A program made the translations under genes and the position numbers. A stretch of 64,000 bases of DNA from Onchidella celtica (lineage: Eukaryota; Mollusca; Gastropoda; Systellommatophora; Onchidiidae). The DNA lies in NCBI GenBank assembly GCA_963931925.1, contig OZ007575.1, positions 42,726,112 through 42,790,111 on the forward strand, in the 5' to 3' direction. The notes below the pieces were generated by a model that was not told where the DNA came from, searched no databases, and saw only the letters and a program-made list of their open reading frames with translations. Of the stretch, positions 5,218 to 61,037 are shown piece by piece (the first letter of the stretch is position 1; each line of letters opens with the position of its first letter).

Positions 5218-6414
5218 TGTCACAAATCCCAGACTGGGAGATGTAATAAGTTATGACAGGACAACAATCACGAACAAACAAGTTAACACTTAACAGAACA
5301 ATCCATCAGACTCACACATTTATTAAACATAATTATACAGATAATAGCGCAATTACATACATTATATTATTGAAATCAACTGCCGTACAACGGCCTTATT
5401 CTCACACACACTCTTCCTCGGGTCCACAACCCGGTAGTTACTCCTAAAGGCACTTCGGCCTCAGCCTCTCCCCTCAGGGTCTTAATAGCACATTACTAAT
5501 TTACTGGCACCGCAGTCTCTCAATATCACCTTCCTATTGTCATACACCTTAGCATTCCCCTAGCACCTCAGCAGGGCAATAACACATTATCATTTCAATA
5601 GACATTATCATTTCAATAGACATTATCATTTCAATAGTACATTCTCCCCTCAGCATGGCAATAGTGCATTATCACATTCACGCTCATATCTACGTCCCTG
5701 TCCGTGGCCTGACTACCACGACTTTATGTGCCTCTACTGTCCTGCACTGACAGCCTCACTTCTGGCCTATGTGTGGCCTCCGGCCCTATGCTGGCCTATC
5801 CCCTGTGCTCATCAAGGTGGCTCTGCGGCCCGTCCTCGACACCTACAAGAATAACATTACATTGGTATAATACCCTACCATTTCTATTCACTCCACCTCT
5901 CCTTACTACCCATAAAGCGTACACACACTAGTTCACCTTTCACTCACCACACATCTTACGGTAACACACCTCCATCGGAGTACACACTACTCACTCGCGC
6001 TACAAATCCATGAACTCACTTTCATCTATCGCTCATGGCGCACATTGCTATATCCAATATCAAGGACTTCCACATTCCTCACCTATACTTATTTACATCA
6101 TGGTAATAGACGAATATAATATAATACATCAATCATAGTAATCAATCAACGTTCTACGTACCAGTCATTACTGGAAAGACTCTCTCACTAGTCTTCTCGA
6201 CTGCTTCCCTTATGTCCGCCCGATGGGCTCTTATTCACAGGTCCGTTCCGTAGGACCTTCTAACTTGCAGTGATAGTAATACAGTGCTTTCGCCTCCTTC
6301 AGACCCCCCCACTACTCACAACAGCACGCTTAACTTGCTGTCTACTGTGAGCCCTTCTTACTCTACACCCGCTCTGTAGCAATCCCCTTAATTGCACTCA
6401 CTCCACTCGTGACA
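5218..6414 (-). repeat. 3' LTR of outer element (LTR type A)
   Basis: 1197 bp bounded by TGTCAC...GTGACA, giving the usual TG..CA ends inside a 6-bp inverted repeat. Near-identical to 20355-21551. It carries a triplicated CATTATCATTTCAATAGA block near 5584-5640 that type B LTRs lack, and a different sequence on the U3 side near 6300-6360. Confidence 0.93.
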
Positions 6415-6432
6415 TCATCCCCCACCCCAAAA
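6415..6432 (-). promoter_or_regulatory. Polypurine tract of outer element
   Basis: On the - strand, GGGGTGGGGGATGA abuts the 3' LTR and is preceded by a T run. This is the expected place and composition for the plus-strand primer used in reverse transcription. The same sequence abuts the inner 3' LTR at 9770. Confidence 0.75.
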
Positions 6433-6772
6433 AAATTAATGCAATTAATTTCAAATCGCATCAAGATGACTGTCAACGAGTGAGCGTGAGCAATACGTAC
6501 ACTAAAAAAAAAATGACCTAGCAGTTCCCCTAGTATATAGAATACCGAAATCAGGGGAAAATATGGGGATCAATATGGCCTGCAATATGCATATATGTGT
6601 CACATCATGAATAGCTAACTAGTCACAATACTTAATACAGAATCAAAAACCACTCAACCTATCAACCATTCTTCATATCATATTTATAATGTCAATATTT
6701 TAAAGTCGACTCATTCACACAGATCCTGTCAATGTTCCTGTCCTCCGATGTATAAGCTCCTGAAATCTTCCC
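6433..6772 (-). other. 3' untranslated region of outer element
   Basis: About 340 bp between the pol stop codon and the polypurine tract. No env-like or other ORF is present. Closely matches the corresponding region of the inner copy (9790-10123). Confidence 0.8.
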
Positions 6773-8532
6773 CTAGGCTCGACTAAGGTAGTCGGCGATA
6801 TGATTGCTGGTTCCTGGAATTGGTTGAATAACGAAGGTATACGGCTGCAAAGCCAATGCCCATCTAGACAAGCGTGGGCTGGACGAACGATTCTTCGACA
6901 AAAATGTCAGTGGCTTGTGGTCTGTCTGGATACAAAATTCTCGTCCCATGAGATAACGTCCTAATTTCTGGACGGACCACACAATGGCAAGACACTCACG
7001 CTCTATCACAGAATACTTTCTTTCTCTCTGCAATAACTTCCTACTGACATAACATACAGGATGGAGACATTCGTTCTTCTCCTGTAGAAGACAAGCGCCG
7101 ACACCAGAGTCCGACGCATCCGTTCTGAGGATAAAATTAGATCGAAAATCGGGTAATATCAGAATGGGTGACGATGATAATGCTGTCACCAAATTATCAA
7201 ATGATGTCTGACATTCAGACGTCCACTGGACCTTATCGGGTTGTCCCTTCTTAGTAAGGTCAGTAAGAGAAGATGACAAGGAGGAAAAATTTGGAATGAA
7301 CTTTCTGTAATAATTTAAAATTCCCACTAAGCTTCTGACTTGTTTCTTTGTTTTAGGGATTTGCAACCCTACTAACTTGTCAATTTTTGTTTCTTCAGGT
7401 CTCTGAACACCTCTACCCACAATATGTCCTAAGAATACTATCTCTGGACATGCCAAATCCATCTTTGCGGGTTTAGCAGTTAACCCAAAATGACGTAATC
7501 GTTGAAAAATTACTGTTAGTGTCTGAATATGATCAGACCATGTCGACGTATGGCATGCTATATCGTCAAAGAATGACACGACATTAGGTATATCCTTCAA
7601 CACTAGTCTCATTAATCGTGCAAACGTCGCTGGCGCGTTTACCAACCCAAATGGCATGACCTTAAATTGGAATAATCCAATGGGCGTTTGGAACGCCGTG
7701 TATTGTTTAGACTCCTCAGTAAGCGGGATTTCCCAATAACCTTTCGTTAAATCTATCTTGGAAAACCACGTGGACCCGGCCAATGAAGCTATTAATTCCT
7801 CCTGAAACGGAATAGGCTCCCTATCGCCTACCGTAATAGTGTTCAATCTTCGAAAATCAATACAGAACCGCACCGATCCATCAAGTTTTTTCACGAGGAC
7901 GATGGGTGATGAATACGGCGATGTTGATGGTTCTATCACATCTAACTTCAACATTGACTCAACTTCCTTTATGACTCTATCTCTCGAAGAAAAAGGCAGC
8001 GGATACGGTCTAAGAAATACTGGCTTATCCGAAGTCAACTTTATTTGGTGCTGGATCACCGTAGTGCGACCCGGCAAATCCGTAACAACATCCGGAAATG
8101 ACGCTAACAGGGTCTCAAGTTCCCTACTCCTTGAACTCGTAAGGTCAGGGTTAATTTTTACGTCCCTGTAACCTTGTGTCGCAGTTAACTCCGGCAATTG
8201 AATTTGTAACTCTTCCTGCGCCTCGGTGTCGCTTACGTCACAGTCCAACTGGTCTACGACCCCCGTACAAGCAATAGAGAAGACAGTCTCCTCTGGTCTT
8301 GTCTGTGCACACAGATACTGTGGTCTCTCATAAAATCTCTGTAGCATGTTAACATGGAAAAACTTACTCGTTCCATCAATGTGGATAGCGTAATCTACCT
8401 TTGAAACAACTCGCTCAATAACATAAGGGCCTTTCCATGTCATCAATAACTTATTATGGTCCGTAGGTAACAACAACAGAACCTTGTCTCCTGGCTTAAA
8501 AATTCTCAGTTTGGAACCTCTATCTTTATAGT
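6773..8532 (-). pseudogene. pol: Outer element pol, 3' part: integrase end, RT, RNase H
   Basis: Continues the frame interrupted at 17033. In order it encodes the GPY/F-type integrase tail (TWKGPYVIERV), reverse transcriptase and RNase H. The RT carries motif A (FSKIDLTKGYWEIPL), motif B (QFKVMPFGLVNAPATF) and an active-site box FFDD in place of the usual YxDD. RNase H keeps its four acidic residues in RTDAS, ERECLA, QTDHKPL and HIADYLS, and the protein ends there. The first five bases (8528-8532, ATAGT) are the duplicated target. An apparent upstream extension to 8581 is nested LTR sequence and not part of the protein. Domains were assigned by motif recognition. Confidence 0.9.
8528..8532. 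repeat. Target site duplication of inner element, left copy
   Basis: ATAGT here and at 17033-17037 flank the inner element. The corresponding uninterrupted site in the inner copy's own pol reads CTTTATAGTCTTTTGC, near 11874-11889. This proves insertion into the outer element's pol. Confidence 0.97.
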
Positions 8533-9769
8533 TGTCACAAATCCCAGACTGGGAGATGTAATAAGTATGACAGGACAACAATCACGAACAAACAAGTTAA
8601 CACTTAACAGAACAATCCATCAGACTCACACATTTATTAAACATAATTATACATATAATAGCGCAATTACATACATTATATTATTGAAATGACTGCCGTA
8701 CAACGGCCTTATTCTCACACACACTCTCCCTCGGATCCACAATCCGGTAGTTACTCCTAAAGGCACTTCGGCCTCAGCCTCTCCCCTCAGGGTCTTAATA
8801 GCACATTAATAATTTACTGGCACCGCAGTCTCTCAATATCACCTTCCTATTGTCATACACCTTAGCATTCCCCTCGCACCTCAGCAGGGCAATAACACAT
8901 TATTATTTCCATAGCCATCAACATGGCAACAACATAGTATCAGTTCACTAGCCTATCAACATGGCAACAATATAGTACCTCATTCACTCTCATATCTACG
9001 TCCCGGTCCGTGACCTGACTGCCACGACTTTATGTGCCTCTACTGTCCTGCACTGACAGCCTCACTTCTGGCCTATGTATGGCCTCCGGCCCTATGCTGG
9101 CCTATCCCCTGTGCTCATCGAGGTGGCTCTGCGGCCCGTCCCCGACACCTACAAGAATAACATTACATTGGTATAATACCCTACCATTTCTATTCACTCC
9201 ACCTCTCCTTACAACCCATGAAACGTACACACACTAGTTCACCTTTCACTCACCACACATCTTACGGTAACACACTTCCATCGGAGTACACACTACTCAC
9301 TCGCGCTACAAATCCATGAACTCACTTTCATCTATCGCTCGTGGCGCACATTGCTATATCCAATATCAAGGACTTCCACATTCCTCACATATACTTATTC
9401 ACATCATGGTAATAGACGAATATAATATAATACATCAATCATAATAATCAATCAACGTTCTACATACCAGTCATAACTGGAAAGACTCTCACTAGTCTTC
9501 TCGACTGCTTCCCTTTATGTCCGCCCGATGGGCTCTTATTCACAGGTCCGATCCGTAGGACCTTCTAACTTGCAGTGATAGTAATCCAGCGCTTTCGCCT
9601 CATTCAGACTTCCACACCACTCATACACGCACGCTTTTCCCACTTGTCTGCATGAGTTATTTTTACTCTTCCCCTTTCACGTCTTTTCCTATCCGTCTGT
9701 CGTGAGCTCTTCTTATTCTACACCCGCTCTGTAGCAATCCCCTTAATTGCAATCACTCCACTCGTGACA
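8533..9769 (-). repeat. 3' LTR of inner element (LTR type B)
   Basis: 1237 bp bounded by TGTCAC...GTGACA. Nearly identical to 15798-17032. Compared with type A it lacks the ATTATCATTTCAATAG triplication, has two copies of a CATCAACATGGCAACA-type block near 8920-8970, and carries a different U3-side segment near 9600-9715. Confidence 0.95.
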
Positions 9770-9787
9770 TCATCCCCCACCCCAAAA
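9770..9787 (-). promoter_or_regulatory. Polypurine tract of inner element
   Basis: GGGGTGGGGGATGA on the - strand directly abuts the 3' LTR, identical to that of the outer element. Confidence 0.78.
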
Positions 9788-10123
9788 AAATTAATGCAAT
9801 TAATTTCAAATCGCATCAAGATGACTGTCAACGAGTGAGCGTGAGCAATACCTACACTAGAAAATGACCTAGCAGTTCCCCTATTATATAGAATACCGAA
9901 ATCAGGGGAAAATATGGGGATCAATATGGCCTGCAATATGCATATATGTGTCACATCATGAATAGCTAACTAAACACAATATCTAATACAGAATCAAAAC
10001 CCACTCAACCTATCAACCATTCTTCATATCATATTTATAATGTCAATATTTTAAAGTCGACTCATTCACACAGATCCTGTCAATGTTCCTGTCCTCCGAT
10101 GTATAAGCTCCTGAAATCTTCCC
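9788..10123 (-). other. 3' untranslated region of inner element
   Basis: About 335 bp between the RNase H stop and the polypurine tract. Non-coding and nearly identical to 6433-6772. Confidence 0.8.
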
Positions 10124-13100
10124 CTAGGCTCGACTAAGGTAGTCGGCGATATGATTGCTGGTTCCTGGAATTGGTTGAATAACGAAGGTGTACGGCTGTA
10201 AAGCCAATGCCCATCTAGACAAGCGTGGGCTGGACGAACGATTCTTCGACAAAAATGTCAGTGGCTTGTGATCCGTCTGGATACAAAATTCTCGTCCCAT
10301 GAGATAACGTCCTAGTTTCTGGACGGACCAGACAATGGCAAGACACTCACGCTCTATCACAGAATACTTTCTTTCTCTCTGCAATAACTTCCTACTGACA
10401 TAACATACAGGATGGAGACATTCGTTCTTCTCCTGTAGAAGACAAGCGCCGACACTAGAGTCCGACGCATCCGTTCTGAGGATAAAATTAGATCGAAAAT
10501 CGGGTAATATCAGAATGGGTGACGATGATAATGCTGTCACCAAATTATCAAATGCTGTCTGACATTCAGACGTCCACTGGACCTTATCGGGTTGTCCCTT
10601 CTTAGTAAGGTCAGTAAGAGAAGATGACAAGGAGGAAAAATTTGGAATGAACTTTCTGTAATAATTTAAAATTCCGACTAAGCTTCTGACTTGTTTCTTT
10701 GTTTTTGGGATTTGCAACCCTACTAACTTGTCAATTTTTGTTACTTCAGGTCTCTGAACACCTCTACCCACAATATGTCCTAAGAATATTATCTCTGGAC
10801 ATGCCAAATCCATCTTTGCGGGTTTAGCAGTTAACCCAAAATGACGTAATCGTTGAAAAATTACTGTTAGTGTCTGAATATGATCAGACCATGTCGACGT
10901 ATGGCATGCTATATCATCAAAGAATGACACGACATTAGGTATGTCCTTCAACACCAATCTCATTAATCGTGCAAACGTCGCTGGTGCGTTTACCAACCCA
11001 AATGGCATGACCTTAAATTGGAATAATCCAATGGGCGTTTGGAACGCCGTGTATTGTTTAGACTCCTCAGTAAGCGGGATTTCCCAATACCCTTTCGTTA
11101 AATCTATCTTGGAAAACCACGTGGACCCGGCCAATGAAGCTATTAATTCCTCCTGAAACGGAATAGGCTCCCTATCGCCTACCGTAACAGCGTTCAATCT
11201 TCGAAAATCAATACAGAACCGCACCGATCCATCAAGTTTTTTCACGAGGACGATGGGTGATGAATACGGCGATGTTGATGGTTCTATCACATCTAACTTC
11301 AACATTGACTCAACTTCCTTTATGACCCTATCCCTCGACGAAAAAGGCAACGGATACGGTCTAAGAAATACTGGCTTATCCGAAGTCAACTTTATTTGGT
11401 GCTGGATCACCGTAGTGCGACCCGGCAAATCCGTAACAACATCCGGAAATGACGCTAACAGGGTCTCAAGTTCCCTACTCCTTGAACTCGTAAGGTCAGG
11501 GTTAATTTTTACGTCCCTGTAACCTTGTGTCGCAGTTAACTCCGGCAATTGAATTTGTAACTCTTCCTGCGCCTCGGTGTCGCTTACGTCACAGTCCAAC
11601 TGGTCTACGACCCCCGTACAAGCAATAGAGAAGACAGTCTCCTCTGGTCTTGTCTGTGCACACAGATACTGTGGTCTCTCATAAAATCTCTGTAGCATAT
11701 TAACATGGAAAACCTTACTCGCTCCATCAATGTGGATAGCGTAATCTACCTTTGAAACAACTCGCTCAATAACATAAGGGCCTTTCCATGTCATCAATAA
11801 CTTATTATGGTCCGTAGGTAACAACAATAGGACCTTGTCTCCTGGCTTAAAAATTCTCAGTTTGGAACCTCTATCTTTATAGTCTTTTGCTCTTTTCGAA
11901 GCGATACCAGAAGCTTCTTCTGCTATAGTGCGCGCTGAAGATAGTATTTCTCTTAAATCAACAAGGTACTGAAACACCGAAATCTGCTCATCGTCTCCCG
12001 ATGATGGCGACGTCATCATGTCCCGAAGAACATCAGTTGGGCCCCTAGGACTACGACCGTACATCATTTCGAACGGCGAGAATCCCGTTGACTCCTGCCG
12101 TACCTCTCTGTACGCGAATAACACTGCAGGGATATATCTATCCCAATCTTTAGGGCGATCAGCAGCTACCTTACGCAGCATCGACTTTAACGTCGAGTTC
12201 AATCTCTCGCACATGCCATTAGCCTGCGGATGATAAGGGGTGGTAGTGATAGGTTGTATACTGAATAAGCGGAACAATTCCTTCATCATCTGCGACGTAA
12301 ATTGCGCGCCCCTATCAGACAGAATTTGCTCTGGTATTCCTACCCTAGCGAAGATTGCAAACAACGCTTCCGCGACTGCCTCAGACGTTATGGTCCGCAG
12401 AGGAACCGCCTCTGGCCATCTCGTAGCATTACATATGACCGTTAAGAAAAATCGATTCCCCCTATCGGTCGCTGGGTGAATGGGGCCAACAAGGTCTATC
12501 GAGACCTTTTTAAACGGTTCCGAGACCGTGGGGATCTTCTGAAGAGGGGCCTGGGGTGTACGACCCTTATGCGTCGTCTTTTGGCACGCACTGCACGTCT
12601 TACAATAGACTTGCACATCTCTGTGGATCGATGGCCAGTAAAAATTTTTAAGAACCCTTTCTTTGGTTCTAGCTATCCCCATATGACCCGCTAATGGGAC
12701 ATCATGTGACAAATGCAATACTGTTGCGATCAGCAACGCTGGCACAACGACCTGCTTTAAAATGGAGGACACCGTTACATACTTACGGAACAGAATGCCC
12801 GCCTGAACAATAAAGGAGGACGACCCGTTCTTATATCTCCTCGTTTTCTCGGTTCGCGCTTCCCCAAAACATGGGTTTAATGATGGGTCCTCCCTTTGTA
12901 ATCTCGCCAAGCGCTCTGGCGTGATATCTAGGTTGACCGCTGGCGTAGCCAAAGGTCTAATCTTATCTTTATCAGCTACCCGTCGCCGTGTTTCGACCGC
13001 GGCGCAAAAGTCAATACCTTTTGATTGCGACCATGCTTGCACGTTCTCATCGGAAGGGGAAACTACCCGTGATACATTCCCAATGATGAGCTGGGCGCCT

Positions 13101-13726
13101 GGAAAACAACCAACGACTGCTTCGAGTTCCCCGCTAAGGAAAGGTGTATCTATCATTATTTTTGCCATGGGTAATTTCTCAATGGCCCCCGAAAATTGGA
13201 TGCACGGGACAGTCTCACCTGTAAGCTGTGAATCCCGAATGCAGTCCCTATGCACTCCCACAACGGTAGATCCTGTATCTCGTAAAACCGAGACCGGTTC
13301 GTCCCCAACAAACCCCGGATAAACCCTAAGACCACCTCCTGTATGACATGAATTTATAACGGGGATCTTTCTCCCACAAGGTAAAACACCGGAAGACAAT
13401 AACTTCTCACAACTGGGACACTTAGAATACTGTACGCCTCCGTTGTCCGATGTAACACACGCGGCTGCATGATGAAATTTATTTGGGGAGCCTGGACTGG
13501 AGCTACTGTCCACGTTCGCCGCTATCCTACCTGCAGGGCAGTTCACGCTGATGTGATCTGCTCTTCCGCAGTTCCAACACTTCGCGGCCCTACACTCGCG
13601 GGAAAAGTGACCCACGCGTCCGCAAGTCCAACACTCCGCTCCCTGTGCTGCCCTAGGCCTGGGTCCCCGTGACCCCTCGCGACCGGAACTAGAGTCCCTA
13701 TGCCGTCGGTCATCGGCAAAGGTCAC
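10124..13726 (-). CDS. pol: Inner element pol: NC knuckles, protease, integrase, RT, RNase H
   Basis: 1200 residues from the first Met after the TAG at 13880; the frame is open from 13879 and in register with gag. Two CCHC knuckles (Cys32-35-His40-Cys45 and Cys50-53-His58-Cys63) are followed by aspartic protease (Asp150-Thr-Gly). Integrase comes next: HHCC zinc finger (His341, His348, Cys378, Cys381), catalytic Asp411, Asp471 and Glu507 with the classic 35-residue D-E spacing, and a GPY/F-like tail near 649-651. RT follows (motif A Asp875, active box FFDD at 935-938), then RNase H (Asp1086, Glu1127, Asp1152, Asp1195) ending at 1200. Integrase before RT is the copia order in a gypsy-type protein, the hallmark of Gmr1-like elements. 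Confidence 0.95.
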   Translation of the reverse strand: MTFADDRRHRDSSSGREGSRGPRPRAAQGAECWTCGRVGHFSRECRAAKCWNCGRADHISVNCPAGRIAANVDSSSSPGSPNKFHHAAACVTSDNGGVQYSKCPSCEKLLSSGVLPCGRKIPVINSCHTGGGLRVYPGFVGDEPVSVLRDTGSTVVGVHRDCIRDSQLTGETVPCIQFSGAIEKLPMAKIMIDTPFLSGELEAVVGCFPGAQLIIGNVSRVVSPSDENVQAWSQSKGIDFCAAVETRRRVADKDKIRPLATPAVNLDITPERLARLQREDPSLNPCFGEARTEKTRRYKNGSSSFIVQAGILFRKYVTVSSILKQVVVPALLIATVLHLSHDVPLAGHMGIARTKERVLKNFYWPSIHRDVQVYCKTCSACQKTTHKGRTPQAPLQKIPTVSEPFKKVSIDLVGPIHPATDRGNRFFLTVICNATRWPEAVPLRTITSEAVAEALFAIFARVGIPEQILSDRGAQFTSQMMKELFRLFSIQPITTTPYHPQANGMCERLNSTLKSMLRKVAADRPKDWDRYIPAVLFAYREVRQESTGFSPFEMMYGRSPRGPTDVLRDMMTSPSSGDDEQISVFQYLVDLREILSSARTIAEEASGIASKRAKDYKDRGSKLRIFKPGDKVLLLLPTDHNKLLMTWKGPYVIERVVSKVDYAIHIDGASKVFHVNMLQRFYERPQYLCAQTRPEETVFSIACTGVVDQLDCDVSDTEAQEELQIQLPELTATQGYRDVKINPDLTSSRSRELETLLASFPDVVTDLPGRTTVIQHQIKLTSDKPVFLRPYPLPFSSRDRVIKEVESMLKLDVIEPSTSPYSSPIVLVKKLDGSVRFCIDFRRLNAVTVGDREPIPFQEELIASLAGSTWFSKIDLTKGYWEIPLTEESKQYTAFQTPIGLFQFKVMPFGLVNAPATFARLMRLVLKDIPNVVSFFDDIACHTSTWSDHIQTLTVIFQRLRHFGLTAKPAKMDLACPEIIFLGHIVGRGVQRPEVTKIDKLVGLQIPKTKKQVRSLVGILNYYRKFIPNFSSLSSSLTDLTKKGQPDKVQWTSECQTAFDNLVTALSSSPILILPDFRSNFILRTDASDSSVGACLLQEKNECLHPVCYVSRKLLQRERKYSVIERECLAIVWSVQKLGRYLMGREFCIQTDHKPLTFLSKNRSSSPRLSRWALALQPYTFVIQPIPGTSNHIADYLSRA

Positions 13727-13879
13727 AACTCGCCCCCGGCCATTACCGCGACCTAGCCCTCCTGCTCGGTCAAACTTACCGGATCCATATGCCGGTGATT
13801 GGTGATAGCCCCTACGCTGCCCCTGGGCTTGCCCGCTATAGGCACCACGCTGACGCGACCTGTCCCTAAGTCCTGCCGG
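13727..13879 (-). CDS. Inner element linker between gag TAG and first pol Met
   Basis: 51 codons in the same frame as gag and pol, rich in Gly, Arg, Gln and Ser. The same segment is translated without interruption in the outer copy. It is only made if TAG at 13880-13882 is read through or a non-Met start is used. Confidence 0.6.
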
Positions 13880-14836
13880 CTACCCCTCGACAACGGCGAC
13901 GTACCCAGCATCTTGGACGTACGCCCTGGCGACTGGTTTGGACGGATGCGCCGTACGGTATGCCTCCGCCAACTTAGACGCCTCCTGCACCGTCGCGGGT
14001 TCGTTCTCTTTCAGGAAAGCCACCAGATCTTTGTGGCACGACGCGTACAGCTGGTCACGGATCATTAAGTCTTTCAGTTTAGCAAAATCCGTGCCCACAT
14101 GCGCCAAGTCTATCCAGTTCGCGAAATACTCCGTTAGTCTCGCGACGAAGGCAGCAAAGTCCTCCCTGGTATCTGCACGTGCTCGCCTAAACTGCTCCCG
14201 GAAATATTCCTCGGTACGCGCAAATCGGCGAAGCAGCAAAGCCTTCAGCTTATCGTAATCTTGCACGTCTTCGCGCTGTAGCTCTTTAAAGTAGGTTAAC
14301 GCTCGCCCCTGCAATAGCGATGCCAGGTACGTGGCCCATAATTCCTTATTTTCCCCCCATTGCAATTGTGCGTTCAGTTCGAACCTGTAAAGGAAGGCGT
14401 CTATGTCGTCCTTCCGGTCGTCGAACGTAGGGAGCTTAATCCTAACGCCACCCTTATTGTGTACCTGCCGCTCAACTGTTTCTGTTGGCGCATTCTTTTT
14501 GAGTTCTAATTCCGCGATTCTTACTCGCGCGTCTGTCTCCCGCTCTTGAGCTTCTATCTCCTTTAACTTTAACTCCCTCTCCTGCTCCCGTTCCTTAGCC
14601 TCTCTTTCCTGTTGCTTAAACTCCCTTTCCTGTTCCTTATCCTTAGCCTCTCTTTCCTCTTGCTTATCCTTAGCCTCTCTCTCCTGCTCCTGAGCCTTAG
14701 CCTCTTTTTCTCGCTCTCTATCCGTAGCACGCTCATCGCGCAAATCCGCCTGCTGTTCTTTGATCCAGCCGCGTAGCTCCTCTCCCTCAAGGCCAAGTTC
14801 CTTACCCAACTTCATTAGTTGTTGGAGTTCCGCCAT
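13880..14836 (-). CDS. gag: Inner element Gag (capsid), ended by TAG
   Basis: 318 residues. The N-terminal ~110 residues are a highly charged, probably coiled-coil block of short Glu/Lys/Arg/Gln repeats. From about residue 135 comes a capsid-like helical domain (DAFLYRFELNAQLQWGENKE, then LASLLQGRALTYF), and the last ~80 residues (LKDLMIRDQLYASC, LVAFLKENEP, EAYRTAH) have the look of the SCAN-related capsid C-terminal domain of Gmr1-like elements. The stop TAG replaces TCG (Ser) of the outer copy and falls before the zinc knuckles. The coil repeat count is higher than in the outer Gag. The start is the first Met after the ~960-bp leader. Confidence 0.92.
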   Translation of the reverse strand: MAELQQLMKLGKELGLEGEELRGWIKEQQADLRDERATDREREKEAKAQEQEREAKDKQEEREAKDKEQEREFKQQEREAKEREQERELKLKEIEAQERETDARVRIAELELKKNAPTETVERQVHNKGGVRIKLPTFDDRKDDIDAFLYRFELNAQLQWGENKELWATYLASLLQGRALTYFKELQREDVQDYDKLKALLLRRFARTEEYFREQFRRARADTREDFAAFVARLTEYFANWIDLAHVGTDFAKLKDLMIRDQLYASCHKDLVAFLKENEPATVQEASKLAEAYRTAHPSKPVARAYVQDAGYVAVVEG

Positions 14837-15783
14837 TTCACAGATTTGTGGTTATGGTATCTATTATAAAACGACCAACCTGTCGGTATGATCACTAACG
14901 ATACGACCAGAGACCTGAGATCACACCAGATATAACAATACCCGGTTGTCTCAAATACAATTCAGAAATTTACCTTTACAGCACAACTAATTCTATATCT
15001 ATAAAATGTATAGCACCATTAATTATAAAAAGAATAGAAAAGACAAGAATAAGGAAATTTAGTAGAAAGACCACAAGGACGTCGAGGAACAACGAACTAG
15101 ACTAGGACAAAGACGTAAAAAAGAAAATATAATGGAAAAAAAATGCAACCTAACTACGCCGATTACACAACAAGGTACGAACAAGAACAGAGTCTGAAAA
15201 AAAAGAACGTATCTACAGAATAGGGAAGAGAGGGACAAGAGAAACGTCTTCCTAAAACAACGAGGAAGATAGAACGCTACAATCTAAACAAAAATACAGG
15301 TCCCTACAGAACTGTTCACTGTGATGAACGAAGTTCCAAAGTTTACCACACCTTTTTAAAAGGATAAACTAAGTTCAACACCGCAAACCCGCGCCACCGC
15401 CCGTATAATCAATAACGACAACAAAAACAGCAAAAACAGGGAAAAAGACAGATCACAGGGACAGCCCACAATCCAGGGCACAAAAATTTTGACTTTTACT
15501 TAACTTTCAAATTTTGAGTAAAACTCCTCCCCTTAATCGGAGCTCTGGCTGCTCGTCTCCTCAGGCTGCACGCACACACTCTGGAAAGTTTAAATACACA
15601 TTAATACCTATTCATAGCAATACATGCATCAATACATATTATTATTCATAAACATACATAAATCATATCATCATGAAATTTCCATTCATCCCACGAACAA
15701 AGACAACAGCACGAATTCCTAGCACAACAGAAAAACAACTAGATATAACGAATACACAATGTCAAAATGACCACAGGTAAACA
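14837..15783 (-). other. 5' leader of inner element
   Basis: About 950 bp between the primer-binding site and the gag start, without ORFs. It should hold packaging and dimerisation signals. Closely similar to 19388-20340 of the outer copy but with scattered indels. Confidence 0.8.
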
Positions 15784-15796
15784 GGACTAGCCCCCA
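15784..15796 (-). promoter_or_regulatory. Primer-binding site of inner element (tRNA-Pro type)
   Basis: One base inside the 5' LTR, the - strand reads TGGGGGCTAGTCC, matching the tRNA-Pro primer site used by murine gammaretroviruses (TGGGGGCTCGTCC) at 12 of 13 positions. The outer copy matches at all 13. Confidence 0.75.
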
Positions 15797-15797
15797 G

Positions 15798-17032
15798 TGT
15801 CACAAATCCCAGACTGGGAGATGTAATAAGTATGACAGGACAACAATCACGAACAAACAAGTTAACACTTAACAGAACAATCCATCAGACTCACACATTT
15901 ATTAAACATAATTATACATATAATAGCGCAATTACATACATTATATTATTGAAATGACTGCCGTACTACGGCCTTATTCTCACACACACTCTCCCTCGGA
16001 TCCACAACCCGGTAGTTACTCCTAAAGGCACTTCGGCCTCAGCCTCTCCCCTCAGGGTCTTAATAGCACATTAATAATTTACTGGCACCGCAGTCTCTCA
16101 ATATCACCTTCCTATTGTCATACACCTTAGCATTCCCCTCGCACCTCAGCAGGGCAATAACATTATTATTTCCATAGCCATCAACATGGCAACAACATAG
16201 TATCAGTTCACTAGCCTATCAACATGGCAACAATATAGTATCTCATTCACTCTCATATCTACGTCCCTGTCCGTGACCTGACTGCCACGACTTTATGTGC
16301 CTCTACTGTCCTGCACTGACAGCCTCACTTCTGGCCTATGTATGGCCTCCGGCCCTATGCTGGCCTATCCCCTGTGCTCATCGAGGTGGCTCTGCGGCCC
16401 GTCCCCGACACCTACAAGAATAACATTACATTGGTATAATACCCTACCATTTCTATTCACTCCACCTCTCCTTACAACCCATGAAACGTACACACACTAG
16501 TTCACCTTTCACTCACCACACATCTTACGGTAACACACTTCCATCGGAGTACACACTACTCACTCGCGCTACAAATCCATGAACTCACTTTCATCTATCG
16601 CTCGTGGCGCACATTGCTATATCCAATATCAAGGACTTCCACATTCCTCACATATACTTATTCACATCATGGTAATAGACGAATATAATATAATACATCA
16701 ATCATAATAATCAATCAACGTTCTACATACCAGTCATAACTGGAAAGACTCTCACTAGTCTTCTCGACTGCTTCCCTTTATGTCCGCCCGATGGGCTCTT
16801 ATTCACAGGTCCGATCCGTAGGACCTTCTAACTTGCAGTGATAGTAATCCAGCGCTTTCGCCTCATTCAGACTTCCACACCACTCATACACGCACGCTTT
16901 TCCCACTTGTCTGCATGAGTTATTTTTACTCTTCCCCTTTCACGTCTTTTCCTATCCGTCTGTCGTGAGCTCTTCTTATTCTACACCCGCTCTGTAGCAA
17001 TCCCCTTAATTGCAATCACTCCACTCGTGACA
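15798..17032 (-). repeat. 5' LTR of inner element (LTR type B)
   Basis: 1235 bp, TGTCAC...GTGACA. Pairs with 8533-9769. The small number of differences, including a 2-bp CA deletion in the ATAACATTATT stretch, indicates recent insertion. Confidence 0.95.
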
Positions 17033-17037
17033 ATAGT
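17033..17037. repeat. Target site duplication of inner element, right copy
   Basis: ATAGT, identical to 8528-8532. Confidence 0.97.
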
Positions 17038-19387
17038 CTTTTGCTCTTTTCGAAGCGATACCAGAAGCTTCTTCTGCTATAGTGCGCGCTGAAGATAATC
17101 TTTCTCTTAAATCAACAAGGTCTATCGAAACCTTTTTAACCGGTTCCGAAACCGTGGGGATCTTCTGAAGAGGAGCCTGGGGTGTACGACCCTTATGCGT
17201 CGTCTTTTGGCACGCACTGCACGTCTTACAATAGACTTGCACATCTCTGTGTACTGACGGCCAATAAAAATCTTTCAGAACTCTCTCCTTGGTTCTAGCA
17301 CTTCCCATATGATGCGCTAATGGAACATCATGGGCCAGACGCAATACTGTAGCAATCAACGACCGTGGCACCACGACCTGCTTTTGGACGGAAGCCACTG
17401 TGACGTACATACGGAACAGAATGCCCCCCTGGACAAAAAAAGAAGATGACCCGTTTTTATATTTCCTCGTTTTCTCGGTTCGCGCTTCCCCAAAACATGG
17501 GTTTAATGATGGATCCTCCCTTTGTAATCTCGCCAAGCGCTCTGGCGTGATATCTAGGTTGACCGCTGGCGTAGCCAAAGGTCTAATCTTATCTTTATCA
17601 GCTACCCGTCGACGTGTTTCGACCGCGGCGCAAAAGTCAATACCTTTTGATTGCGACCATGCTTGCACGTTCTCATCGGAAGGGGAAACTACCCGTGATA
17701 CATTCCCAATGATGAGCTGGGCGCCTGGAAAACAACCAACGACTGCTTCGACTTCCCCGCTAAGGAAAGGTGTATCTATCATTATTCTTGCCATGGGTAA
17801 TTTCTCAATGGCCCCCGAAAATTGGATGCACGGGACAGTCTCACCTGTAAGCTGTGAATCCCGAATGCAGTCTCTATGCACTCCCACAACAGTAGATCCT
17901 GTATCTCGTAAAACCGAGACCGGTTCGTCCCCAACAAACCCCGGATAAACCCTAAGACCACCTCCTGTATGACATGAATTTATAATGGGGATCTTTCTCC
18001 CACAAGGTAAAACACCGGAAGATAATAACTTCTCACAACTGGGACACTTAGAATACTGTCCGCCTCCGTTGTCCGATGTAACACACGCAGCCGCATGATG
18101 AAATTTATTTGGGGAACATGGACTGGAGCTACTGTGCACGTTCGCCGCTATCCTACCTGCAGGGCAATTCACGCTGATGTGATCTGCTCTACCGCAGTTC
18201 CAACACTTCGCGGCCCTACACTCGCGTGAAAAGTGACCCACGCGTCCGCAAGTCCAACACTCCGCTCCCTGTGCTGCACTAGGCCTGGGTCCCCGTGACC
18301 CATCGCGACCGGAACTAGAGTCCCTATGCCGTCGGTCATCGGCAAAGGTCACAAATCGCCCCCGGCCATTACCGCGACCTAGCCCTCCTGCTCGGTCAAA
18401 CTTACCGGATCCATATGCCGGTGATTGGTGATAGCCCCTACGCTGCCCCTGGGCTTGCCCACTATAGGCACCACGCTGACGCGACCTGTCCCTAAGTCCT
18501 GCCGGCGACCCTTCGACAACGGCGACGTACCCAGCATCTTGGACGTACGCCCTGGCGACTGGTTTGGACGGATGTGCCGTACGGTATGCTTCCGCCAACT
18601 TAGACGCCTCCTGCACCGTCGCGGGTTCGTTCTCTTTCAGGAAAGCCACCAGATCTTTGTGGCACGACGCGTACAGCTGGTCACGGATCATTAAGTCTTT
18701 CAGTTTAGCAAAATCCGCGCCCACATGCGCCAAGTCTACCCAGTTCGCGAAATACTCCGTTAGTCTCGCGACGAAGGCAGCAAAGTCCTCCCTGGTATCT
18801 GCACGTGCCCGCCTAAACTGCTCCCGGAAATATTCCTCGGTACGCGCAAATCGGCGAAGCAGCAAAGCCTTCAGCTTATCGTAATCTTGCACGTCTTCGC
18901 GCTGTAGCTCTTTAAAGTAGGTTAACGCTCGCCCCTGCAATAGCGACGCCAGGTACGTGGCCCATAATTCCTTATTTTCCCCCCATTGCAATTGTGCGTT
19001 CAGTTCGAACCTGTAAAGGAAGGCGTCTATGTCGTCCTTCCGGTCGTCGAACGTAGGGAGCTTAATCCTAACGCCACCTTTATTGTGTACCTGCCGCTCA
19101 ACTGTTTCTGTTGGCGCACTCTTTTTGATTTCCAACTCGGCGATCTTTACTTGCGCCTCTATCTCCCTTAACTTTAACTCCCTCTCCTGCTCCCGTTCCT
19201 TAGCCTCTCTTTCCTGTTGCTTAAACTCCCTTTCCTGTTCCTTATCCTTAGCCTCTTTTTCTCGCTCTCTATCCTTAGCACGCTCATCGCGCAAATCCGC
19301 CTGCTGTTCTTTAATCCAGCCGCGTAGCTCTTCTCCCTCCAGGCCAAGTTCCTTACCCAACTTCATTAGTTGTTGGAGTTCCGCCAT
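17033..19387 (-). pseudogene. gag-pol: Outer element gag-pol, 5' part: Gag, NC, protease, broken integrase
   Basis: 785 codons from Met at 19387 to the nested insertion. Gag resembles the inner Gag but with a shorter charged coil block. It continues without a stop through two CCHC knuckles (CWTCGRVGHFSREC and CWNCGRADHISVNC), protease (RDTGST) and the integrase zinc finger (HDVPLAHH..CKTCSACQ). After SIDLV, the first catalytic Asp, the frame jumps directly to DLRE, skipping the stretch that holds the second Asp and the Glu. The junction (17113-17121) is CAACAAGGT, a 9-bp sequence present at both deletion ends in the inner copy (11959 and 12487, 528 bp apart). The apparent extension to 17006 is nested LTR sequence. 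Confidence 0.92.
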
Positions 19388-20340
19388 TTCACAGATTTAT
19401 GGTTATGGTATCTATTATAAGACGACCAACCTGTCGGTATGATCACTAACGATACGACCAGAGACCTGAGATCACACCAGATATAACAATACCCGGTTGT
19501 CTCAAATACAATTCAGAAATTTACCTTTACAGCACAACTAATTCTATATCTACAAAATGTATGCACTATTAATTATAAAAGAAAATAGAAACGACAAGAA
19601 TGAAGAAATATAGTAGAAGGACCACAAGTACGTCAAGGACAACGAACCAGACTAGGACAAAGACGTAAAAAAGAAAATATAATGGAGAAAAAAAAAATGC
19701 AACCTAACTACGCCGATTACACTACAAGGTACGAACAAGAACAGAGTCTGAAAAAAAAGAACGTATCTACAGATAGGGAAGAGAGGGACAAGAGAGACGT
19801 CTTCCTAAAACAACGAGGAAGATGGAACGGCACAATCTAAACAAAAATACAGGTCCCTACAGAACTGTTCACTGTGATGAACGAAGTTCCAAATTTAGCC
19901 CACCTTTTGAAAAGGATAAACTAAGTTCAACACAGCAAACCCGCGCCACCGCCCGTATAATCAATTACAACGAAAACAGCAAAAACAGGTAAACAGACAG
20001 ATGAAAAGACAGCCCTTAATCCAGGGTACAAAATTTTTGACTTTTACTTAACTTTCAGCCTTATGCGTTTAAGTCCTCGACCCAATCGGAGCTCTGGCTG
20101 CTTGTCTCCTCAGGCTGCACGCACACACACTGTCTCTGCAGAAATTTAAGTACACATTAATACATATTCATCAAAGTACCTGCATCAATACATATTATTA
20201 TTCATAAACATACATAAATCATACCATCATGAAAATTTCCATTCATCCCACGAACAAAGACAACAGCACGAATTCCTAGCACAACAGAAAAACAACTAGA
20301 TATAACGAATACACAATGTCAAAATGACCACAGGTAAACA
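19388..20340 (-). other. 5' leader of outer element
   Basis: About 950 bp, non-coding, homologous to the inner leader. Confidence 0.8.
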
Positions 20341-20353
20341 GGACGAGCCCCCA
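20341..20353 (-). promoter_or_regulatory. Primer-binding site of outer element (tRNA-Pro type)
   Basis: TGGGGGCTCGTCC on the - strand, one base inside the 5' LTR. It is complementary to the 3' end of tRNA-Pro over 13 bases. Confidence 0.8.
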
Positions 20354-20354
20354 G

Positions 20355-21551
20355 TGTCACAAATCCCAGACTGGGAGATGTAATAAGTTATGACAGGACA
20401 ACAATCACGAACAAACAAGTTAACACTTAACAGAACAATCCATCAGACTCACACATTTATTAAACATAATTATACAGATAATAGCGCAATTACATACATT
20501 ATATTATTGAAATCAACTGCCGTACAACGGCCTTATTCTCACACACACTCTTCCTCGGATCCACAACCCGGTAGTTACTCCTAAAGGCACTTCGGCCTCA
20601 GCCTCTCCCCTCAGGGTCTTAATAGCATATTACTAATTTACTGGCACCGCAGTCTCTCAATATCACCTTCCTATTGTCATACACCTTAGCATTCCCCTAG
20701 CACCTCAGCAGGGCAATAACACATTATCATTTCAATAGACATTATCATTTCAATAGACATTATCATTTCAATAGTACATTCTCCCCTCAGCATGGCAATA
20801 GTGCATTATCACATTCACGCTCATATCTACGTCCCTGTCCGTGGCCTGACTACCACGACTTTATGTGCCTCTACTGTCCTGCACTGACAGCCTCACTTCT
20901 GGCCTATGTGTGGCCTCCGGCCCTATGCTGGCCTATCCCCTGTGCTCATCAAGGTGGCTCTGCGGCCCGTCCTCGACACCTACAAGAATAACATTACATT
21001 GGTATAATACCCTACCATTTCTATTCACTCCACCTCTCCTTACAACCCATTAAGCGTACACACACTAGTTCACCTTTCGCTCACCACACATCTTACGGTA
21101 ACACACCTCCATCGGAGTACACACTACTCACTCGCGCTACAAATCCATGAACTCACTTTCATCTATCGCTCATGGCGCACATTGCTATATCCAATATCAA
21201 GGACTTCCACATTCCTCACCTATACTTATTTACATCATGGTAATAGACGAATATAATATAATACATCAATCATAATAATCAATCAACGTTCTACGTACCA
21301 GTCATTACTGGAAAGACTCTCTCACTAGTCTTCTCGACTGCTTCCCTTATGTCCGCCCGATGGGCTCTTATTCACAGGTCCGTTCCATAGGACCTTCTAA
21401 CTTGCAGTGATAGTAATACAGCGCTTTCGCCTCCTTCAGACCCCCCCACTACTCACAACAGCACGCTTAACTTGCTGTCTACTGTGGGCCCTTCTTACTC
21501 TACACCCGCTCTGTAGCAATCCCCTTAATTGCACTCACTCCACTCGTGACA
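20355..21551 (-). repeat. 5' LTR of outer element (LTR type A)
   Basis: 1197 bp, TGTCAC...GTGACA, partner of 5218-6414. Confidence 0.94.
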
Positions 21552-26070: not shown

Positions 26071-26562
26071 TTTACTCGGACAATCTCACCAGGAACGCGA
26101 AAACTCTACAAACAGAAGCGTAGGCTCACACCATAGCATATTTTCTATTACCCACATGTCCAGATAAACAGAAGCTTCTGTTATAGGCCGTGCCCAGAAA
26201 CAAACAAAATTCTATTAAGGAAAGAGCGATGACGCGAACCAAGCTGTAATTGACATTTCGGTGAGTACCACATCTCCCATGAGATTAGATTTAAGACTGC
26301 CATGGACTGGAGAAAGGATACACCACATCAAACAGGCTCTGTGGCCATCGGGGGAAAAATAGACAGATAAACAGCAAAGAAGAAGAAGAAAAAGGAAAAA
26401 TGCCCCCCCCCCCCTCTGGAAATTTGGATTTGTGGGGGGAAACACAGAGATGTTATTTAGGTGGTTAGGAGAAGATGTGTGGCACAAACAGCCAGATACG
26501 GAACCCTGAACCTCTCCTTTGGTTATTGCATTTCCATACGCTGGAAATTGAATGAAAGTTGA

Positions 26563-26583
26563 GATGACAGAGAGAGAGAGAGG

Positions 26584-26645
<62 letters not shown>

Positions 26646-27081
26646 AGAGAGAGAAAGAAAGAGGTGAGAGAAAAAGGGACGGAGAGAGAGACAGACAGAA
26701 AAAGAGACACAGAGAGAGATAAAGAAAGACAGAAAGACAGAGAGAGATAAAGAAAGATAGAAAGACAGAGAAAGACAGACAAACATACATAGACAGAGTA
26801 AAAGAGGGGGAGAGGGGGGGGGGCAGAGAAAGAGAGAAACTTACAGATAGACAGAAAGACTGAGAGAGACAGATAGATGGAAAGAGAAAGACAGACAGAC
26901 AAACGGACATAGAATAAAAGAGAGACAAAGAGAGAGGCGACAGACAGATATACATAGAGAGAGTGAGAGAGATACAGAGAGAGAAAGAGGGAGGGGTGAG
27001 AGAGAGACATACACACAGACGAAAAGAGAAACAGAGACAGACAAACGTTCATAGAGTAAGAGAGAGAGAGAGAGAGAGCGC

Positions 27082-27120
<39 letters not shown>

Positions 27121-27175
27121 GGGGTGAGAGAGAAGTAAAAAAAGAGACAAGAGAGTGAAAACAAAGATTTCAATC
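26563..27175. repeat. ~600-bp polypurine (GA/GACA-rich) tract
   Basis: Nearly all-purine + strand made of (GA)n runs near 26590-26640 and 27060-27118 plus GAGACAGACAGA variants. The long Ser/Leu frames on the - strand are translated simple repeat, not genes. Confidence 0.92.
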
Positions 27176-36445: not shown

Positions 36446-36692
36446 CAACCACAGAGCAGAATGGAGCGCCGGCGAAGTGCCCAACACACTACACTGCTTC
36501 TTTCTCTCTCCCTGTCTCGCTCACTCTCTCTCTCTCTACCTCTCTCTATCTCAGAGCAATTAATTGTAACGCAGCCTTAGGCGCAGTTCACAACTCACAA
36601 CACAAATGACATTTGAATAGTTATTAATAATAATACATATTTAATAATGAATAATAAATTTTGCTGCAAGATTGACTGTCTCTCTTCCGCCC

Positions 36693-36868
36693 CAGTCTCT
36701 CTTTCTGTGTCTCTGTCAGTCTCTCTTTCTGTGTCTCTGTCAGTCTCTCTTTCTGTGTCTCTGTCAGTCTCTCTTTCTGTGTCTCTGTCAGTCTCTCTTT
36801 CTGTGTCTCTGTCAGTCTCTCTTTCTGTGTCTCTGTCAGTCTCTCTTTCTGTGTCTCTGTCAGTCTCT
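36693..36868 (+). repeat. Minisatellite, 24-bp unit, about 7 copies
   Basis: Perfect or near-perfect copies of CAGTCTCTCTTTCTGTGTCT followed by CTGT, in the intron 220 bp before exon C. It reads as Ser/Leu/Val repeats in all forward frames and is not coding. Confidence 0.95.
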
Positions 36869-37087
36869 CCTCTCTCTTTTTCTGCTTCTTTCTTTTTTCT
36901 TTCTCTCTCCTTCTCTCCCTCCTTCGGTCTCTTGCCTTGTTTCTGTTTGTCTGTCTCTCTTGCTGTGTGTGTGTGCGTGTGTCAGTGTATGCGTGTTGTT
37001 TTCTGGTTGTTATTGACGTTGTATTAGGAATTATAATTATTAATGTATGTAAATTGGGATTCATAAATATTTTGATTTAAATTTCAG

Positions 37088-38049
37088 GCCAGGCAAACAC
37101 AACCCTAGATGTAACGACAGATCTTAAGTCCAAAGAAATCACTTTGGATCAGTCGGGGACCAACATAAGTGACGTCACAAAGACGTCGTCGATGTGGATA
37201 TCCGCGTCTCAGCCAATCAGTGTCTACGTCATGCTCACCATTTGCAGCAATGTGACGTCAACGCTATGCGGGGATAACGGGTTTTTCCTTCCCAGCGTAG
37301 AACAATACTTCTCGTGCCAGGGGAACAGGTCTAAAGACGGCTGTGTCTGTACCTGCCCGTCTGTCTTTCAATGGGACATCGATCCTCATAGCTTCCATTT
37401 CTTCCGTAACGCATCGGAGTCACGGCCTACGTCAATATATCCCTTGCTGGTCGGAGAACTCTTTGACGTCTCTACGTCAATCTCAAATTCAAAACAGTTT
37501 AAAGATGCTCAGGACATCATTGTGACCTCCAACACCTCTTTTAACATTTTCCGTTATGATCCTTTGAATTTGAACTTTCTTCCCGCCGGAAGCGCGCTTG
37601 CCAATATCTACAGCGTGTGTTCTTCTGAGTCTTACAATCTTCACTTTCGTGTTTGTGATGATACAGTTGAGTCTCCAGTCAAATCTGAGGATCCCAACAG
37701 CAAACAGGACTTTGGAGATTCAAACTCTGCGCACAGTCAGTGTTCGTGTGAGTTTATTCAGGACGCGGTTTCCTTTTCCGTGGGAGCTGATGAAGCAAAT
37801 GCGTTGCACAACAATCCGGGGACGTCTGGAAGGAAAGTGAGCATACGCCGTGGTGGGGGAGGTGGCGGGGACAGTTTCACGTGGGTGGAGGATGCAGAAG
37901 ACACCACACGGCCTCTCATAGCTGTGGTGGTATCGCTATGTGTTTCCATATTCGCCGTAATCGCTCTCATTTCCGGCTACATGCTAGTGGAGATGGTGTC
38001 ACGGCGAAAACACGTGCGAAATACGAAGATACGACCTTTTGTTTCTTGA
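37088..38049 (+). CDS. IgGFc-binding-like membrane protein, terminal exon C
   Basis: The acceptor AAATTTCAG|GCC and phase 1 join to exon B (G|GC, Gly). Encodes about 319 residues. It opens with a Thr-rich TTLDVTTDLK and an ISDVTKTSSMWISASQPISV segment that matches the 'DLTG..I.S..PI.V..G' end of IgGFc-binding domains. A Cys-rich segment (FSCQGNRSKDGCVCTC) and N-glycosylation sites follow. A Gly6 run near residue 255 precedes one transmembrane helix (PLIAVVVSLCVSIFAVIALI) and a short basic cytoplasmic tail (SRRKHVRNTKIRPFVS). The product is thus a type I surface protein without the VWD/TIL repeats of vertebrate FCGBP. Ligand unknown. Confidence 0.85.
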
Positions 38050-59391: not shown

Positions 59392-59922
59392 ATGAAAACG
59401 GAATTACAAGAACTCACTAATAGCACAGCATCCGTAATTACCTTTACAGTTGAAAGCATTAAGTCTATGTTGTCAGCCTCAAAAAACACTGCAACAGGAC
59501 CCGATCAAATAGACTATAATCAGCTAAGGAGCTTATCTGACGATGAACTGCAGGAACTAGCCGACTTGTATAATGAGAGTCTGATGCTGGGAGACGTTCC
59601 CGAAGACTGGTTGCACAGCTACTTGGCAGTGATACCTAAGCCAGGCAGAGATCACACCAAACTAAATGGTTACCGAGTGATAACAATGCAAAACACAGTT
59701 GGCAAATCAATGGAGAAAATGGTTGCACAGATCCTGGCAGCTGACCTTGAGTATGGGGAGGCACTACCAGCGACCCTTGGAAGCTATAGAAAAGGAAAGC
59801 ACACATGGGCAAATGCAGCAATCTTTGCTTATGACACATATGAGGCATTTCAGCAAAAGGTAGAGACACTGGCTGTGGCAATAGACCTGGAAGATGCATA
59901 TAACAGAGTATCATATGGGTGA
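59392..59922 (+). pseudogene. LINE reverse transcriptase, N-terminal fragment
   Basis: 176 residues covering RT fingers and motif A (AIDLEDAYNRV). Ends at a TGA directly after SYG, with homologous sequence continuing in the next fragment. Confidence 0.85.
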
Positions 59923-59988
59923 CTCCTGAGCCTGCTGGTTGAATGTGAGTTAGATCCATACCTGGTCAATTGGGTCGCGAGCGCCCTG

Positions 59989-61009: not shown

Positions 61010-61037
61010 AAATGGAGGAGGTAGCCGCTGAAAACGC

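What the first reader, a model, noticed from the sequence alone, without database searches (positions are those of the whole stretch)
10124..13726. Gypsy-type retrotransposon with copia-type pol order (integrase before RT)
The frame reads zinc knuckles, protease, integrase (zinc finger, DDE, GPY/F-like tail), then RT and RNase H. RT and RNase H motifs look like Ty3/gypsy, whose normal order is protease, RT, RNase H, integrase. The reversed order is the known signature of Gmr1-like elements, first described from cod and other deuterostomes. A near-intact copy here would help define the clade's host range if the host is a mollusc.
Basis: partly seen in the sequence, partly recalled or inferred. 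Interest (0 to 1): 0.75.

Follow-up and report, generated by a model that had tools for sequence, protein, structure and literature searches.

The report
Integrase-first jumping gene in sea slug
This is a recently active retrotransposon of a known but unusual kind, with its integrase gene placed ahead of its copying enzyme, sitting inside a second copy in a sea slug genome where many sister copies have lost the integrase core yet appear to have spread.

Summary
Minus-strand ORF 10124-13726 reads zinc knuckles, protease motif, integrase (HHCC, D-D-35-E, GPY), RT, RNase H, all of Ty3/gypsy type. The upstream gag carries a SCAN domain, a trait reported for Gmr1-like elements. The whole element is 8533-17032: 1.24-kb LTRs, perfect 5-bp target duplication, tRNA-Pro-like primer site, polypurine tract. 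It lies inside a second copy of its family (5218-21551). The host is a mollusc, Onchidella celtica, by mitochondrial COI and assembly size. The order is no assembly artefact: 150 of 150 best-scored genome matches cross the integrase-tail-to-RT boundary, and 182 of 182 fetched relatives are integrase-first. The clade is already reported from fish, frogs, crustaceans and an annelid; the 2018 mollusc survey does not list it, but unnamed mollusc, echinoderm and hemichordate relatives exist. So: a new member of a known kind. Unexpected: two deletions removing most of the integrase core occur at 987 and 599 exact-match places, against 1,736 with the intact boundary. Four deleted copies whose ends could be read have perfect, different duplications, so they probably moved with integrase from other copies. 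No Gmr1 type sequence was available for a direct tree.

The parts
8533..17032 (-). Inner full-length element A (LTR to LTR, 8,500 bp)
   Evidence: Repeats; ends, TSD and LTR pair
15798..17032 (-). 5' LTR of A (1235 bp)
   Evidence: 4 mismatches of 1235 aligned positions and one 2-base gap against the 3' LTR; TGTCAC...GTGACA ends
8533..9769 (-). 3' LTR of A (1237 bp)
8528..8532 (.). Target duplication ATAGT, one side
   Evidence: Identical to 17033-17037
17033..17037 (.). Target duplication ATAGT, other side
15784..15796 (-). Primer binding site, tRNA-Pro-like, one base inside the 5' LTR; one mismatch in this copy
   Evidence: the outer copy and 5 of 5 other copies whose 5' LTR end was read have TGGGGGCTCGTCC; tRNA-Pro identity recalled from the murine leukaemia virus PBS
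9770..9790 (-). Polypurine tract before the 3' LTR
   Evidence: same tract in the outer copy and in the two other copies whose 3' LTR start was cleanly placed
13880..14836 (-). gag ORF, SCAN-like capsid C-terminal domain
   Evidence: Pfam SCAN 32.9 bits, cut-off 27; ends at an in-frame stop that the outer copy lacks
10124..13726 (-). pol ORF: NC knuckles, protease motif, integrase, RT, RNase H
5218..21551 (-). Outer copy of the same family, split by A
   Evidence: LTRs 5218-6414 and 20355-21551, 9 mismatches of 1197; flanks ACAAA and ACAAC, 4 of 5 equal
17033..19387 (-). Outer copy: gag, protease motif, integrase zinc finger, with most of the integrase core deleted
17113..17121 (-). Deletion junction 1 in the outer copy, one copy of the 9-bp repeat ACCTTGTTG left
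   Evidence: 987 exact places in the genome
11959..12486 (-). The 528-bp stretch of A that is missing from the outer copy (holds the second catalytic D and the E)
6776..8527 (-). Outer copy: rest of pol with RT and RNase H

Best explanation
Element A is a Ty3/gypsy LTR retrotransposon of the Gmr1 type in the sea slug Onchidella celtica. Shown: it has paired LTRs, a primer site, a polypurine tract, a SCAN-type gag, and pol in the order protease, integrase, RT, RNase H, and it lies with a 5-bp target duplication inside an older copy of its own family. Inferred: transcription from the LTR, one Gag-Pol polyprotein of about 1,560 residues cut by the protease, priming by tRNA-Pro, and insertion by its DDE integrase. 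Shown: the family is numerous, the copies with cleanly placed ends have nearly identical LTR pairs, and about half of the exact-match boundaries counted in the genome belong to two deletion forms that lack most of the integrase core. Inferred: these deletions arose by template switching between short direct repeats during reverse transcription and spread with integrase supplied in trans by other copies.
For: Domains and order. Ty3 is the best PDB match for RT/RNase H. LTRs, TSD, primer site and PPT. 150 of 150 scored genome matches, the window's own among them, cross the integrase-tail-to-RT boundary at 98% identity or more; these are the best-scored of 11,724 first-look candidates. Of them 75 have open frames of 1,500 or more residues. 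182 of 182 fetched relatives are integrase-first, being the best 120 listed of 2,009 and of 4,653. In the same genome 7 of 7 scanned RT-first gypsy frames have RT before integrase and no SCAN at E 0.001. RT-RNase H tree: integrase-first rows on one side, 97/98. Exact junction counts, reversed-pattern control 0 in each: intact right boundary 1,736, deletion 1 987, deletion 2 599. Of 8 deletion-1 copies examined, 3 had both ends in the fetched stretch and all 3 have perfect, different 5-bp duplications, one of them with a 5' end resting on an 18-base match. Of 2 deletion-2 copies examined, one has LTRs with 0 mismatches of 1190 (3 gap bases) and a perfect duplication; the ends of the other were not cleanly placed. 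Host by COI 99%.
Against: No Gmr1 type sequence was available. In the integrase tree the RT-first row L015 falls among the integrase-first rows, unresolved; the AU test does not reject one clade (p 0.43) and without L015 support is 100/100. With copia as outgroup the RT tree does not show the integrase-first rows as one clade, its weak inner branches placing the RT-first rows among them. Copy A itself has an in-frame stop between gag and pol. The protease is supported mainly by its motif. Only 4 of 10 deleted copies examined gave readable ends on both sides.
Confidence: 0.9

Rival explanations
1. A gypsy element that acquired the integrase-first order on its own and is not a member of the Gmr1 clade.
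For: The type sequence was not compared; the integrase tree is only partly resolved and the copia-rooted RT tree does not group the integrase-first rows.
Against: 47-64% identity over integrase to RNase H to the 120 listed integrase-first relatives, including sea urchin, sea star and hemichordate ones; SCAN in 77 of these 120 by my hand count of the table; integrase-first rows on one side of the RT-RNase H tree.
Confidence: 0.06
2. A hybrid with copia-derived integrase or RT.
For: Only the domain order.
Against: Integrase has the H2C2 domain and a GPY motif and no copia model is matched at E 0.01; RT matches Ty3 best; six copia RTs of this genome branch apart at 100/100.
Confidence: 0.01
3. 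The order is an assembly rearrangement.
For: The window holds two nested, similar copies.
Against: 150 of 150 scored matches on many chromosomes span the same boundary; relatives in other species share the order; perfect TSD and LTR pairing.
Confidence: 0.003
4. The integrase-deleted copies did not move in trans: the same deletion recurred after insertion at each place because of the short direct repeats.
For: Deletion 1 lies between 9-bp repeats and could recur.
Against: Deletion 1 mostly goes with its own LTR type: of 6 copies with a 5' LTR start matched, 4 fit the outer LTR better (94.6-98.2% against 78-94% for A), one fits A better and one fits neither well. Deletion 2 has only about 5 bases of microhomology by my reading, yet 599 exact copies. 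Another integrase deletion seen in one copy is private, 1 place.
Confidence: 0.05

Closest known systems
Gmr1 of Atlantic cod and Gmr1-like elements (Butler 2001; Goodwin and Poulter 2002, seen only as citations in PMC8220671 and PMC2774666)
   Same: Ty3/gypsy element with integrase before RT; SCAN-type gag in the wider group
   Different: Mollusc host; type sequence not compared here
Gmr1-4 of Tetraodontiformes (PMC11117352, passages and part of one table seen)
   Same: Clade name; gag and pol in one frame of 1,506-1,634 residues, like the roughly 1,560 here
   Different: There 6.1-6.5 kb with LTRs of 337-518 bp; here 8.5 kb with 1.24-kb LTRs
Gmr1-like elements of crustaceans (GyRex4/5, PMC3587641) and of the annelid Lamellibrachia (LGF3, PMC8220671), passages seen
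   Same: Protostome members of the clade
   Different: Other phyla; sequences not available here
MolGy and Cigr-1 clades of molluscs (PMC6238403, section 6 and passages seen)
   Same: Mollusc gypsy clades defined on RT/RNase H; this family may fall in one of them
   Different: That survey names Gmr1 only once, in its background; integrase position of its clades is not given in what I read
Unnamed protein P0001 (64% identical over integrase to RNase H)
   Same: Integrase-first with SCAN gag
   Different: Source organism not given

Membership tests
Ty3/gypsy LTR retrotransposon | Paired LTRs with TG...CA ends and a short target duplication | tested here: met
Ty3/gypsy LTR retrotransposon | RT, RNase H and integrase of gypsy type, not copia | tested here: met
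Ty3/gypsy LTR retrotransposon | Usual order RT, RNase H, integrase | tested here: not met
   Integrase before RT; this exception marks Gmr1
Gmr1 clade | Integrase upstream of RT in a gypsy element | tested here: met
Gmr1 clade | SCAN-like C-terminal capsid domain in gag | tested here: met
   trait from passages of PMC4131045, PMC3424704 and PMC4592553. No PDB chain is matched by the gag sequence at E 0.1
Gmr1 clade | RT and integrase both branch with Gmr1 itself | not testable with these tools
   No type sequence could be fetched
Gmr1 clade | Integrase-first elements separate from RT-first gypsies, RT-RNase H | tested here: met
   97/98 with 25 and 7 rows and no outgroup; not shown as a clade when copia is added on RT alone
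Gmr1 clade | Integrase-first elements separate from RT-first gypsies, integrase | tested here: inconclusive
   Unresolved with L015; 100/100 without it; AU p 0.43
Ty1/copia | Copia-type RT and integrase | tested here: not met

The most novel reading that the evidence does not exclude
In this integrase-first family the integrase core behaves as a dispensable cassette: deletion forms lacking it have twice become successful sub-lineages, together nearly as frequent in exact-match counts as the intact boundary, living on integrase shared by others. One of them keeps the frame through to RT and RNase H. The unusual gene order, with integrase in the middle of one long polyprotein, may favour this, and the balance of intact and deleted copies could be followed as a parasite-host system within one genome.
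Probability: 0.4. Interest if true: 0.6.

Novelty: new member of a known kind. Interest (0 to 1): 0.45.

Why it matters
It places a young, numerous Gmr1-type family in a gastropod with a chromosome-level genome, and shows that integrase-first relatives are present, though unnamed, among bivalve, gastropod, echinoderm and hemichordate proteins. That makes the age and host range of the domain swap testable. The SCAN-type gag in molluscs bears on the origin of the vertebrate SCAN domain. The amplified integrase-deleted forms give a natural case in which integrase seems to be shared between copies.

Tried and rejected
Reading the three LTR blocks at 5218, 8533 and 15798 as a tandem array: rejected, because the two halves of the outer pol meet at the insertion site with a perfect ATAGT duplication. 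Assembly artefact and copia hybrid: rejected (see rivals). A third amplified integrase deletion from copy L017: rejected, its junction occurs at 1 place only. Second protein search with a hemichordate relative in the hope of listing vertebrate Gmr1 proteins: no vertebrate name among the 120 listed of 4,653. Rooting the RT tree on copia: a very long outgroup branch and weak inner branches, inconclusive; an earlier try lost the six copia rows through a wrong motif filter. Gag against PDB: no match. Papers: in the listings, some of them capped (20 of 21, 40 of 91, 25 of 4,887), and in the passages I opened, I saw no report of Gmr1-clade elements in molluscs; subscription journals and repeat databases are not covered. 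PMC8220671 counts a Ciona element in the Gmr1 clade and cites Simmen and Bird 2000 for it, recalled as the source of Cigr-1, so the mollusc Cigr-1 elements of PMC6238403 might be related.
Full report
What is there. On the minus strand the ORF 10124-13726 encodes two zinc knuckles, a DTG protease motif, an integrase with HHCC finger, D-D-35-E triad and GPY motif, then RT and RNase H. Upstream, the gag ORF 13880-14836 carries a charged repeat region (my reading; direct repeats) and a SCAN domain at 32.9 bits, above the Pfam cut-off of 27. Gag and pol lie in one frame, interrupted in this copy by a single stop. Over the whole element the order is gag, protease, integrase, RT, RNase H.

Anatomy. 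Element A runs from 8533 to 17032, with LTRs of 1237 and 1235 bp that differ at 4 of 1235 aligned positions plus one 2-base gap. Each LTR has TGTCAC/GTGACA ends, and A is flanked by ATAGT on both sides. A 13-base tRNA-Pro-like primer site follows the 5' LTR, with one mismatch in this copy; the outer copy and 5 of 5 other copies read lack that mismatch. Identity with the tRNA-Pro site is recalled. The tract TTTTTTTGGGGTGGGGGATGA precedes the 3' LTR. A lies inside another copy of the family. That copy's LTRs, 5218-6414 and 20355-21551, differ at 9 of 1197 positions, its flanks are ACAAA and ACAAC (4 of 5 equal), and its LTRs differ from those of A by about 6% of aligned positions plus gaps. The split outer pol resumes at the target duplication.

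Host. The COI gene on contig C43 is 99% identical in protein to Onchidella celtica; all other listed matches are at 93% or below (best 120 listed). The held genome has 1,140,862,475 bases, against 1,141.02 Mb and 18 chromosomes in the Onchidella celtica genome note (PMC12744200; start of abstract, passages). The word transposon does not occur in that note's main text.

Not chance, not an artefact. A 231-residue query spanning integrase tail to RT start gives 150 scored matches of 150, the window's own included, all at 98% or more; these are the best-scored of 11,724 first-look candidates, so the identity is not a genome-wide figure. Of these 150, 75 have open frames of at least 1,500 residues and 31 have frames of 660-664 residues. 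The two such 664-residue loci that I looked at, L029 and L042, carry deletion 2. All 182 relatives fetched are integrase-first. Named hosts include Ylistrum, Littorina, Haliotis asinina, Argopecten, Mizuhopecten, Pecten, Patiria, Strongylocentrotus, Lytechinus, Diadema and Glandiceps, and Pinctada, Amphiura, Antedon, Holothuria, Dreissena, Crassostrea, Apostichopus and Gigantopelta. By my hand count, 77 of the 120 proteins listed carry SCAN. As a control, 7 of 7 other gypsy pol frames of the same genome that I scanned (L009-L012, L014-L016) have RT before integrase and no SCAN at E 0.001. Of the 12 fetched comparison regions L009-L020, L013, L018, L019 and L020 were not scanned, being broken or partly N, and from L017 only a gag frame was scanned, which turned out to be another SCAN gag.

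Placement. RT and RNase H match Ty3 best among solved structures; PFV integrase is matched at E 1e-25, and the Ty3 chain has a second stretch that the table does not place. No copia model is matched at E 0.01. The RT-RNase H tree of 25 integrase-first and 7 RT-first rows separates the two at 97/98. The 25 are A and 24 of the 182 relatives, chosen for named hosts plus the four nearest. In the integrase tree the long-branched RT-first row L015 falls among the integrase-first rows without resolution. The AU test does not reject one integrase-first clade (p 0.43), and leaving L015 out gives 100/100. With six copia RTs as outgroup, gypsy and copia separate at 100/100, but the RT-first rows fall weakly among the integrase-first rows. 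So gypsy membership is firm, and Gmr1-type membership is supported by order, gag and relatives but not tested against the type sequence.

Integrase-deleted forms. The outer copy lacks 528 bp of pol. The deletion is in frame, runs between two copies of ACCTTGTTG, and removes the second catalytic D and the E. Its exact 30-base junction occurs at 987 places. A second deletion, 530 bp relative to A, at about 5 bases of microhomology by my reading, shifts the frame; its 34-base junction occurs at 599 places. The 31-base intact right boundary occurs at 1,736 places. Reversed-pattern controls give 0 in each case. The patterns differ in length and miss mutated copies, and an intact boundary does not prove an intact integrase, so the ratio (1,586 of 3,322) is rough. 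Of 8 deletion-1 copies whose ends were fetched, 3 had both ends in range, with duplications TTCGG, GACAG and ACCAA, each perfect (the 5' end of the last rests on an 18-base match); 4 gave only a 5' end and 1 gave neither. Of 2 deletion-2 copies, one (C4) has an LTR pair with 0 mismatches of 1190 and 3 gap bases and the duplication TACTA; for the other (C10) my end placement failed. Among 3 copies with long frames, one (C1) was cleanly placed, with 2 of 1239 LTR mismatches and the duplication CTGTG; the other two were not. Each deletion is shared by many insertions with different flanks, so the deleted elements were most likely inserted by integrase from elsewhere. Of 6 deletion-1 copies with a matched 5' LTR start, 4 carry the outer-type LTR, one is closer to A and one fits neither. 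A further deletion in L017 is private.

Literature. PMC6238403 (section 6 and passages) describes 21 mollusc gypsy clades and names Gmr1 once, as an exception in its background. Gmr1-like elements are reported from crustaceans as first in protostomes (PMC3587641, passages), an annelid (PMC8220671, passages), frogs, with SCAN in over 50% of Gmr elements only (PMC4131045, passages), and Tetraodontiformes (PMC11117352, passages). SCAN is described as derived from, or homologous to, a Gmr1-like gag (PMC3424704; PMC4592553; passages).

Verdict. The finding is correct and its interpretation holds within these limits. The element itself is a new member of a known kind. The amplified integrase-deleted forms and the self-nesting are the less expected part.

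Noticed in passing
Host genome C1:2370556, 2377679, 2384802; C16:28728942, 28736177; C1:39709537, 39716783: Copies of the family at regular spacings of about 7.1-7.25 kb, as expected of tandem arrays that share LTRs.
   Followed up: no
Host genome, RNase H search: 150 scored RNase H matches at 132.8-135.1 bits, many with frames near 1,500 residues and higher scoring than copy A (122.8 bits); perhaps a second abundant family or subfamily.
   Followed up: no
L017:6522-9001: A diverged relative (gag 79%, pol pieces 86-96%) with a private integrase deletion.
   Followed up: partly
window 59392-61469 (+): Fragments of another reverse transcriptase element: RVT_1 at 59392-59922 and a weak RNase H match, below its cut-off, at 61038-61469.
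   Followed up: partly
window 26215-27173 and 36624-37064: Low-complexity repeat stretches that read through as long ORFs.
   Followed up: no
window 37144-38049 (+): 301-residue ORF without a Pfam match that looks by eye like part of a membrane protein.
   Followed up: partly
host genome C7:39465500-39474500 (L013): A stretch of this comparison locus reads N and was left alone.
   Followed up: no
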